Below are positions 48,642 through 51,319 of a DNA stretch of 53,926 bases, one piece after another. Position 1 is the stretch's first letter; every line of letters begins with the position of its first letter. Below the pieces are notes generated by a model that ran no database searches, was not told the DNA's origin, and saw nothing but the letters and a program-made list of their open reading frames with translations. Source of the stretch: Fibrobacterota bacterium. GTDB lineage: Bacteria; Fibrobacterota; Chitinivibrionia; Chitinivibrionales; FEN-1185. A program made the translations under genes and the position numbers. The stretch spans positions 63,407-117,332 of the forward strand of contig PLWQ01000035.1 of assembly GCA_003165595.1 (NCBI GenBank), read 5' to 3'.

Positions 48642-49628
48642 TTATCTGACAACCAACATTCTCGACGTCTTCACGAATTCGCCGGTCGAAAGCACGACAA
48701 AATACAACCCCCGGCCGAGGGCCGGCACTTGTAAAGTCCCGGAAGATCCATTGATGACGGTCTCCAGCACCAATTTTCCATTGCAGGAGTACAAGGCAAG
48801 CCGGGCACTGGTGGAGGCGCCGCCATAGGTGTATTTCAATTCGCCGCGTTTTGTCATGGTCACTGCCATGGCGTCAACGAAACTGTAGTTGATTGTCGGT
48901 TCCCTGTTGACCGACGCTACGGGAGGAAAGCCAAAGTCGAGAATATAGTCGGGCCCTATTGTATCGGGTAATGTTGGCGACGGGCACCGCATAATGCTTG
49001 TAAAGTCGTCAACGGAATAACTATAGGAGAGTGGACATGCAGTCTTTTTCATTTTGCGGCATAGGGAATCGTCCTGGCAGGCGCACGCTTCCGTGTCTCC
49101 GGCTGCATTCAGTCTTAAATCCGCCTTTGGGCAGGCCAAATACATATCGGTGAGACAACCGGCCGTCCCGCACATTTGCTGGGGAGCCCAACCCTGGTCG
49201 AGCGGAGTGCTATCGATGTATGTGCCGGGCACAGGTTTATATATCATGGGCAGGTTGTAGCCGTCCACCAAGCTCACATCGTACCAATCGGAACCCTGAT
49301 ATCCCCGTTGTGTAATCTCGGCAAGAGTATAAGGCCCGTTGTAGAACGTGGGATCCCAATATGCCCAGGCCCTCGCAGCCCCCCAATTATTTGAGACTTG
49401 CTCTATTGTGTCTTTTCCCGCCTTTAACATGAAAGTGTCTTTTACCGGAAACCCAATGGCACCGGTAAACTTGACAATCAGGTCTTTGGCCATGTAGTTA
49501 TGCAGATAGTAATAGCGGGTACCAAAGCCGTACTTGCCGCTGTGAGGCCACGCTGTTGGCGGCACTGTTTGAGCGGAAGCGGAGATCACGACAAACAACA
49601 GAGCTGCAGCAGAGAAGAACTTCCTCAT
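48642..49628 (-). CDS. Thaumatin-like secreted protein with T9SS-type C-terminal domain
   Basis: The 328-residue product has a signal peptide (1-20), then the thaumatin (PR-5) pattern: AARAWAYWDPTFYNGPYTLA at 84-103, SDWYDVSLVDGYNLPMIYKP at 113-132, then conserved-type cysteines (CGTAGC, CP, ACAC, C) and ACPLSYSYSVDDFTSIMRC at 197-215. These are the core blocks of the plant/fungal thaumatin family (beta-sandwich with acidic cleft, often glucan-binding or glucanase-like). The last 80 residues (GKLVLETVINGSS, GLYFVVLSTGEF, RMLVVR) resemble the T9SS sorting domain, so the protein is probably displayed on the cell surface. Strong AGGAGGG before ATG. Next to another secreted protein gene. Confidence 0.8.
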   Translation of the reverse strand: MRKFFSAAALLFVVISASAQTVPPTAWPHSGKYGFGTRYYYLHNYMAKDLIVKFTGAIGFPVKDTFMLKAGKDTIEQVSNNWGAARAWAYWDPTFYNGPYTLAEITQRGYQGSDWYDVSLVDGYNLPMIYKPVPGTYIDSTPLDQGWAPQQMCGTAGCLTDMYLACPKADLRLNAAGDTEACACQDDSLCRKMKKTACPLSYSYSVDDFTSIMRCPSPTLPDTIGPDYILDFGFPPVASVNREPTINYSFVDAMAVTMTKRGELKYTYGGASTSARLALYSCNGKLVLETVINGSSGTLQVPALGRGLYFVVLSTGEFVKTSRMLVVR

Positions 49629-49918
49629 ACAACCCTCCTCTTCAAAGTGAAGAACCTCGCAGCAAGCCGCGAGGTTCTTCAATCTCGAAATGCTCACGGC
49701 AAGGATCATATTTCCTACACGTCAACCTCAGCGATGACCAAGCCTCCCCTCGCGGGGAGGCTTTCCAGCGGCTAATTTTCTTCTTCTCTGTGTTCTCTGT
49801 GTCTGCTGAGTCTTCTCTTCTTTGCGTTCTTTTGCGACCTTCGCGCCCCCGATCAGGTCGAGGGCAAGCTTTTGCGGTGAATCTTCTCTTTTCTTCTCCG
49901 TGGTGAGTCTTCTTTCTT
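49629..49918. repeat. Intergenic region with mixed dispersed repeats
   Basis: The region has CTGTGTTCTCTGTGTCTG-type sequence (49783-49806), CTTTGCGTTCTTTTGCGACC followed by CTTTTGCGGTGAATC (49821-49882), and other short repeats also seen at 51568-51675. No gene was recognised. Confidence 0.55.
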
Positions 49919-51319
49919 CTACTGATGGCTCACCAAAATGCGCTGGCAGCGTCCGTCCTGGGCAACAGAATAATAGATACCCGGCATGAGTTTCGAAGTC
50001 GATTGAGCATTTGGCACAAAACGACCTCTGATATCAATCATGTATTTGTTGCCTTGAAGCGGAACGCCATGATACTCCAGGCGATTGCCCTGCAACGGCG
50101 CAATGACGTGTACGATCGGATCAACCCAAACCGCGGGGTGACTCAGTCTTACGCCACCGGGCAAATGGAGAATCATTGTCCATGTGTTGGTAGGGTAATG
50201 AGCAAGCCATATGGTGCCCGAGTCCGGCATATGACTGCCGGCGCAAGAATCCGGGTGAAGGCTGCAATTTCCATAGGCAAGGTTATCACCGTCCCCCACG
50301 ATATAGTTGGAGTCGTTGGTGTAATTCCAATCTTTGAAATCCGACCAGAAGTCACTGGTGATATTATTCAGACCTTGACTAGAGTCTGTAGGACTAAGAT
50401 ACAAATACTTTTTAGGCGCCCAGTTTACGCTGACAGCCATCGTCATTAGAACAGTCTTCGTCCACTCCACTGCAGGCGCAGTCATCTCCTGAAAAGGGAT
50501 CATGGTAAAGCATTTGTGCCTCAGGTTGCAGGCTTGATCCGCCATACAGCCACACCATGCGTCGTATCCGGTATTGAAGCAGGCGACCGCCCCATTATGG
50601 GATATTGTGCACATGCATCCCATTTGAGGAATTGAACCTGCGGTAGGGTGCCACTCATTGGCTTCGGTGGCAGCGGCGCCGCTACTCGGAAGGGTAACCA
50701 TTACCGGCCCATAATTAACCACTGCCGAATTAATGTCTTCTCTGGTAATAAAATGATTGCGGGCGCAGCCCATTGAAAACTCACACTGGTTGGTGAATTG
50801 GCAGATTATATGGTCTGTGCCGAAGGTCGGAGCGGCAGATGCCGAAAAGGTGACTGGAAGGGCGTGAATTACTTTGTCGCCGCTTTCTCTATAGACGATT
50901 TCCAGTTTCCCGCTGGGAGCGCTCCACCAGAAAGTACAGCTACCGTCGCTGGTGGAGGCATTCGTCGCCGGTACGGTGGTCTTGAACTGGCCGTCAATGC
51001 GGATGAGTTTGATCCCGCCCGAGTTGTACACAACCCATTGGCCGTCTTCGGTTATGTTGGTACTGCTGCTGTGATCGCCCGAAGTGTTTGGAATCATTGT
51101 AGGAGCGTTCGTGCCCAAAGCAGATTTGTAAATCCCGCCATTGCTTGCTCCGGCCACAACCGTGCCCTGGACAGGCAGTGTTGCCCCGGAATCCAAGTAA
51201 TGCGTGATATTGACTTTGTGCACAAACGACGGACACGTAACTGGAGTCGTCGCTGCCAAAACCGCTCCTGTGCACGCTAAAAATGCCGCTGTGAATTTAA
51301 TGAGACCGATCCGTTTCAT
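49919..51319 (-). CDS. Secreted cysteine-rich protein with C-terminal T9SS-like domain
   Basis: The 466-residue product has a signal peptide (MKRIGLIKFTAAFLACTGA) and then a beta-propeller-like stretch with TolB/WD-style repeats (GGIYKSALGTNAPTMIPN, ITEDGQWVVYNSGGIKLIRI). A Cys-rich segment follows (GCMCTISHNGAVACFN, WCGCMADQACNLRHKC). The end (KYMIDIRGRFVPN, LMPGIYYSVAQDG, RILVSHQ) resembles a T9SS sorting domain. I do not recognise the central family. GGGAGGAAAG precedes ATG. It is upstream of the thaumatin-like gene on the same strand, 290 bases apart, so co-transcription is possible but not obvious. Confidence 0.7.
   Translation of the reverse strand: MKRIGLIKFTAAFLACTGAVLAATTPVTCPSFVHKVNITHYLDSGATLPVQGTVVAGASNGGIYKSALGTNAPTMIPNTSGDHSSSTNITEDGQWVVYNSGGIKLIRIDGQFKTTVPATNASTSDGSCTFWWSAPSGKLEIVYRESGDKVIHALPVTFSASAAPTFGTDHIICQFTNQCEFSMGCARNHFITREDINSAVVNYGPVMVTLPSSGAAATEANEWHPTAGSIPQMGCMCTISHNGAVACFNTGYDAWCGCMADQACNLRHKCFTMIPFQEMTAPAVEWTKTVLMTMAVSVNWAPKKYLYLSPTDSSQGLNNITSDFWSDFKDWNYTNDSNYIVGDGDNLAYGNCSLHPDSCAGSHMPDSGTIWLAHYPTNTWTMILHLPGGVRLSHPAVWVDPIVHVIAPLQGNRLEYHGVPLQGNKYMIDIRGRFVPNAQSTSKLMPGIYYSVAQDGRCQRILVSHQ

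What the first reader, a model, noticed from the sequence alone, without database searches (positions are those of the whole stretch)
48642..49628. Thaumatin-like protein with a T9SS-type sorting tail
The product carries WYDVSLVDGYNLPM and ACPLSYSYSVDDFTSIMRC, core thaumatin (PR-5) signatures best known from plants, fungi and animals. The C-terminal domain matches secretion by T9SS. A surface-displayed thaumatin fold could bind beta-glucan or fungal walls and is rarely described in bacteria.
Basis: partly seen in the sequence, partly recalled or inferred. Interest (0 to 1): 0.65.

Follow-up and report, generated by a model that had tools for sequence, protein, structure and literature searches.

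The report
Bacterial thaumatin-like protein with secretion tag
This Fibrobacterota bacterium makes a cut-down relative of the plant antifungal/sweet protein thaumatin, with a tag that should export it to the cell surface; its relatives sit beside enzymes that digest beta-1,3-glucan, so it is most likely part of a glucan-eating toolkit rather than a defence protein.

Summary
The minus-strand gene at 48642-49628 (328 aa) has a signal peptide, a thaumatin domain (PF00314, 61.4 bits, cut-off 27.4) and a C-terminal T9SS sorting domain (TIGR04183, 31.1 bits, cut-off 23). An AlphaFold model retrieves only thaumatins as its 28 best PDB matches (one bacterial, 7p22), and separately the T9SS cargo domain of NucA. 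The genome is Fibrobacterota and holds the SprA translocon, four C25 (PorU-type) peptidases and about 100 T9SS-tail hits. It has five thaumatin-like proteins (TLPs), three TLP/GH64-like proteins and about ten GH64 beta-1,3-glucanase loci. The acidic-cleft motif REDDD is intact. The window TLP belongs to a divergent, genus-level subfamily in which the cysteine-rich loops have shrunk (8 Cys instead of 16). One paralogous TLP sits next to GH64 genes, and the neighbour ORF's closest relative in a sister species is also next to a GH64. A spirochaete fuses a TLP to CBM6 modules and GH16. Best reading: a surface-exposed GH152-like beta-1,3-glucan-binding or -cleaving protein for nutrition. Catalysis is untested. 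Bacterial thaumatins are known, and a Chitinophaga TLP also carries a T9SS tail, so this is a new variant of a known kind.

The parts
48642..49628 (-). Thaumatin-like protein gene, 328 aa, signal peptide + thaumatin domain + T9SS C-terminal domain
   Evidence: PF00314 61.4 bits, TIGR04183 31.1 bits; start preceded by GAGGAGG
49572..49628 (-). Signal peptide, residues 1-19 (MRKFFSAAALLFVVISASA|Q)
   Evidence: Read from the sequence; cleavage site inferred, no predictor run
48924..49571 (-). Thaumatin-like domain, about residues 20-235; REDDD = R86, E104, D117, D122, D207/D208; Cys 153, 158, 166, 182, 184, 190, 198, 215
   Evidence: Pfam match residues 98-216, alignment A2, model and Foldseek
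48645..48824 (-). T9SS type A sorting domain, about residues 269-328
   Evidence: TIGR04183 residues 269-326; fold match to NucA cargo domain 8glk_D, TM 0.75
49649..49680 (-). Long perfect stem-loop in the 5' leader, ending about 20 nt before the ATG
   Evidence: RNA fold -32.4 kcal/mol, z -3.9; the only exact occurrence of this palindrome in the genome
49919..51319 (-). Upstream 466-aa secreted ORF of a Fibrobacterota family; its closest relative in a sister species starts 34 nt after a GH64 gene. Functional link to the TLP inferred
   Evidence: No Pfam or NCBIfam hit; family spread; GH64 neighbour in L058; model too weak to name a fold

Best explanation
A secreted thaumatin-like protein of the GH64-TLP superfamily (GH152-like) that acts on beta-1,3-glucan (or mixed-linkage glucan) outside the cell. 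Steps: (1) Sec export by the signal peptide [sequence]; (2) recognition of the C-terminal domain and passage through the SprA translocon, then probably cleavage and anchoring by a PorU-type C25 peptidase [profile hits for the parts; process inferred]; (3) the folded domain presents an acidic cleft (R86, E104, D117, D122, D207/208) that holds a glucan chain [residues conserved; cleft geometry not measured]; (4) the chain is cleaved, or held and loosened, so that GH64 glucanases and other glycoside hydrolases of the cell can digest it [inferred]. The window copy belongs to a fast-evolving, slimmed-down subfamily limited so far to this genus.
For: PF00314 and TIGR04183 above cut-off. Model pLDDT 79 with only thaumatins among the top 28 PDB fold matches, and the T9SS cargo domain 8glk_D matched separately. 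R/E/D/D/D identical in all Fibrobacterota rows. SprA, 515.6 bits; 106 T9SS-tail hits, 150 of 210 candidates scored; four C25 peptidases. The C13 TLP is 57 nt from the first of three tandem GH64 genes, and the arrangement is kept in G018. The C37 TLP is beside a TLP/GH64-like gene, GH2 genes and, further off, a GH31. The upstream neighbour's closest relative in G018 directly follows a full GH64 with T9SS tail. Spirochaete L029 fuses TLP, three CBM6 and GH16. GH152 TLPs are experimentally beta-glucanases, with REDDD named as the active cleft (PMC11800479); GH64 and TLPs form one superfamily (PMC13251364).
Against: No activity or binding datum for any Fibrobacterota TLP was found. The immediate neighbours on the downstream side are housekeeping-type genes (leuS, a GDP-Man/UDP-sugar dehydratase-type gene, PfkB kinase), not CAZymes. 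Domain II is cut down and 8 of 16 Cys are gone; in plant small TLPs the REDDD residues are conserved in sequence yet form no acidic cleft (PMC3048497). The model is only moderate (RMSD about 4-5.6 A, TM 0.58-0.67 to thaumatins). PorP/SprF was not detected (the control also rang nowhere).
Confidence: 0.62

Rival explanations
1. Non-catalytic surface glucan-binding adhesin or helper: the cleft binds beta-1,3-glucan or fungal/plant cell walls and tethers the cell, but does not hydrolyse.
For: Truncated domain II and loss of disulfides; T9SS tail suggests surface display; [quoted passage not shown]
Against: The acidic residues of the cleft, including E104 and D122, are invariant in Fibrobacterota.
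Confidence: 0.22
2. Antifungal (PR-5-like) protein that permeabilises or weakens competing fungi.
For: Family precedent in plants, animals and fungi (PMC3048497; PMC11327054).
Against: No competition or defence genes seen around it; paralogues are among nutrient-type glycoside hydrolases.
Confidence: 0.07
3. Inhibitor-type TLP, like the wheat xylanase inhibitor TLXI.
For: Reduced cysteine set recalls small TLPs; TLXI is found by profile and fold.
Against: The TLXI fold match is weak (TM 0.22/0.42, E 3.8e-4) compared with full TLPs; a polysaccharide degrader gains little from inhibiting xylanase (inference).
Confidence: 0.04

Closest known systems
GH152 / PR-5 thaumatin-like beta-glucanases (Lentinula edodes TLP, whitefly Bta13961, plant osmotin/NP24)
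   Same: Thaumatin profile and predicted fold, conserved REDDD, secreted
   Different: Only about half the cysteines, shortened domains I and II, extra T9SS sorting domain; activity unknown
Bacterial TLP of Amycolatopsis rifamycinica (PDB 7p22)
   Same: Bacterial thaumatin fold; TM-score normalised by target 0.66-0.67
   Different: From an actinomycete; 18-19% identity; its own C-terminal region was not examined here
Chitinophaga sp. YR573 TLP-crystallin-CBM6-T9SS tail protein (L025)
   Same: Thaumatin domain with a T9SS tail
   Different: 13 Cys in the thaumatin domain, with CBM6; the only hit in a 395-genome sample of its phylum
GH64 beta-1,3-glucanases of the same genus
   Same: Same superfamily; a T9SS tail in at least one; gene neighbours of a paralogous TLP
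   Different: Different Pfam family (PF16483), which the window TLP does not match at E<=1

Membership tests
Thaumatin family (PF00314) | Profile score above gathering cut-off | tested here: met
   61.4 bits against 27.4
Thaumatin family (PF00314) | Thaumatin beta-sandwich fold | tested here: met
   Model pLDDT 79; Foldseek E 8e-10, prob 1.00, TMt about 0.6-0.67; predicted, not solved
Typical TLP | 16 conserved cysteines / 8 disulfides | tested here: not met
   8 Cys in the domain, arranged to allow 4 pairs; definition from PMC3048497
Typical TLP | REDDD acidic-cleft residues | tested here: met
   R86 E104 D117 D122 D207/D208; cleft geometry not measured
GH152 | Beta-1,3-glucanase activity | not testable with these tools
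   Needs enzyme assay; family described in PMC11800479
T9SS type A cargo | C-terminal sorting domain above TIGR04183 cut-off | tested here: met
   31.1 bits against 23; fold match 8glk_D
T9SS type A cargo | T9SS translocon in the genome | tested here: met
   SprA 515.6 bits; C25 peptidases
T9SS type A cargo | PorP/SprF in the genome | tested here: inconclusive
   TIGR03519 no hit, but no control rang either
GH64 | PF16483 profile above cut-off | tested here: not met
   No PF16483 match at E<=1 for the window protein

The most novel reading that the evidence does not exclude
Fibrobacterota have evolved their own compact, disulfide-poor thaumatin lineage as a surface-displayed glucanase, working with GH64 relatives of the same superfamily in one glucan-degrading system, with a TLP-to-GH64 continuum (the three intermediate proteins) visible in one genome.
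Probability: 0.35. Interest if true: 0.5.

Novelty: new variant of a known kind. Interest (0 to 1): 0.36.

Why it matters
Thaumatins are studied almost only as plant defence, allergen and sweet proteins. Here they are multiplied (five copies plus three intermediates) in a bacterium rich in GH64 glucanases and are joined to a T9SS tag. That gives a natural test of whether the thaumatin fold is a working nutritional glucanase, and of how few disulfides it needs.

Tried and rejected
Chance match or misassembly: rejected (four paralogues, sister-species relatives, clean RBS). Recent transfer from plants: not supported, since Fibrobacterota TLPs form one clade (100/100) apart from plant and other bacterial TLPs, though eukaryotic sampling was only five plant sequences and the root is by midpoint. 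A conserved TLP-plus-466-aa-ORF pair: rejected, as no other TLP locus examined has that ORF beside it. A repeat element at the leader hairpin: rejected, as its exact palindrome occurs once. Naming the fold of the 466-aa ORF: model pLDDT 55, matches mostly propellers with poor RMSD, not relied on. Literature on bacterial TLPs with T9SS: none held. No GH152 profile as such was used; PF00314 stands in for it.

Full report
What is there. The minus-strand ORF 48642-49628 starts at an ATG preceded by GAGGAGG and encodes 328 residues: a signal peptide (about 1-19, read by eye), a thaumatin domain (about 20-235) and a C-terminal sorting domain (about 269-328). PF00314 scores 61.4 bits (cut-off 27.4) over residues 98-216. 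TIGR04183 scores 31.1 bits (cut-off 23) over 269-326, while Pfam's own tail model is below cut-off (19.9 against 27). Plant and fungal thaumatins of known structure are matched by sequence (E 3.6e-9 at best).

Structure. With 28 sequences in the alignment AlphaFold2 gave mean pLDDT 78.9 and pTM 0.71. The 28 best fold matches in the PDB are all thaumatins (E 8e-10 to 6e-8, probability 1.00, TM normalised by target 0.58-0.67, RMSD 3.9-5.6 A), among them the bacterial TLP of Amycolatopsis rifamycinica, 7p22. The tail matches the NucA cargo domain bound to the T9SS complex, 8glk_D (TM 0.75, RMSD 2.8 A). The RMSD is high enough that cleft geometry should not be read from the model.

Key residues. 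Against all relatives the REDDD set is present: R86, E104, D117, D122 and D207/D208; it is identical in every Fibrobacterota row. Cysteines are few: 153, 158, 166, 182, 184, 190, 198 and 215 in the domain, plus 282 in the tail. By homology with the usual thaumatin pattern (own knowledge of pairing) I infer 153-215, 158-198 and 184-190. Residues 166 and 182 are both Cys in the window protein and both non-Cys in the four closest relatives, which suggests a fourth pair. The cysteine insert of domain I and the SAC...YCC loop of domain II are missing. Plant small TLPs are a warning: they keep REDDD in sequence but lose the cleft (PMC3048497).

Genome. The window lies in a 5.39-Mb, 98% complete genome. 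A genome of the same phylum carries a TLP sequence identical to that of the record 'Fibrobacteres bacterium isolate RYN_348' (L043 and L021), so the phylum is Fibrobacterota. The T9SS translocon SprA is present (515.6 bits), as are four C25 peptidases of the PorU type and 106 T9SS-tail hits (only 150 of 210 candidates were scored). PorP was not found, but the control also failed. T9SS has been suggested for Fibrobacterota (PMC11285876).

Family in this genome. Five TLPs are over the PF00314 cut-off, and three more proteins match weakly. These three match thaumatin below cut-off, and one of them GH64 below cut-off, so I call them TLP/GH64-like. GH64 (PF16483) has 16 matches in about ten genes, two of them near full length. 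In the phylum sample TLPs occur in 5 of 151 genomes and 2 of 41 genera (the genus count is over genomes of good quality). In the tree all Fibrobacterota TLPs group together (100/100), and the window protein groups with the C7 pair and their G018 counterparts (100/99) on a long branch.

Context. Around the window gene itself: leuS, a sugar-nucleotide dehydratase-type gene and a PfkB kinase on one side, and a 466-aa secreted ORF without Pfam match on the other. That ORF belongs to a Fibrobacterota family found in 9 of 151 genomes, mostly without TLPs. In G018 its closest relative (72-74%) starts 34 nt after a full-length GH64 with T9SS tail, and another relative is 28 nt from a protein homologous to the GH2 enzymes. 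The C13 TLP is followed after 57 nt by three tandem GH64-matching genes, and G018 C4 keeps TLP plus at least two. The C37 TLP neighbours a TLP/GH64-like gene, GH2 genes and a GH31. Elsewhere a spirochaete carries TLP-CBM6x3-GH16 in one protein, and Chitinophaga TLP-CBM6-T9SS tail.

Mechanism. TLPs of GH152 are glucanases with REDDD named as the cleft, shown for a fungal and a whitefly protein (PMC11800479), and GH64 and TLPs share a superfamily (PMC13251364). Taken together the likeliest role is extracellular beta-1,3-glucan breakdown or loosening for nutrition. Shown: domain content, residues, secretion parts, paralogue context. Inferred: export route, cleft, substrate, catalysis.

Verdict. 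A real and correctly recognised TLP with a T9SS tail. The kind is known (bacterial thaumatins, T9SS cargo, one Chitinophaga precedent for the combination); the compact genus-level form and the multiplication beside GH64 are the new parts.

Noticed in passing
window 49649-49680: A perfect 15-bp stem-loop sits in the leader of the TLP gene about 20 nt before its ATG; folding z-score -3.9 and the exact palindrome occurs once in the genome. No U tract follows, so not a plain terminator.
   Followed up: partly
window 49919-51319: 466-aa secreted, Cys-rich ORF without Pfam or NCBIfam match; its family was found in this order of Fibrobacterota, with relatives beside GH64 and GH2 genes. Possibly a beta-propeller but the model is weak.
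   Followed up: partly
L014/L015/L004 (G000 C1 and C37) and L058:3013-4293: Proteins of about 390-445 aa that match thaumatin and, in two cases, GH64 weakly; possible intermediates of the GH64-TLP superfamily.
   Followed up: partly
L029 (Spirochaetales MAG JAFGKU010000056.1): Single ORF with thaumatin domain, three CBM6 modules and a GH16 domain.
   Followed up: no
L063:10037-14898 and L060:944-4117: Tandem GH64-matching genes, several with a carboxypeptidase-regulatory-like N-terminal part, next to TLP genes in two species of the genus.
   Followed up: partly
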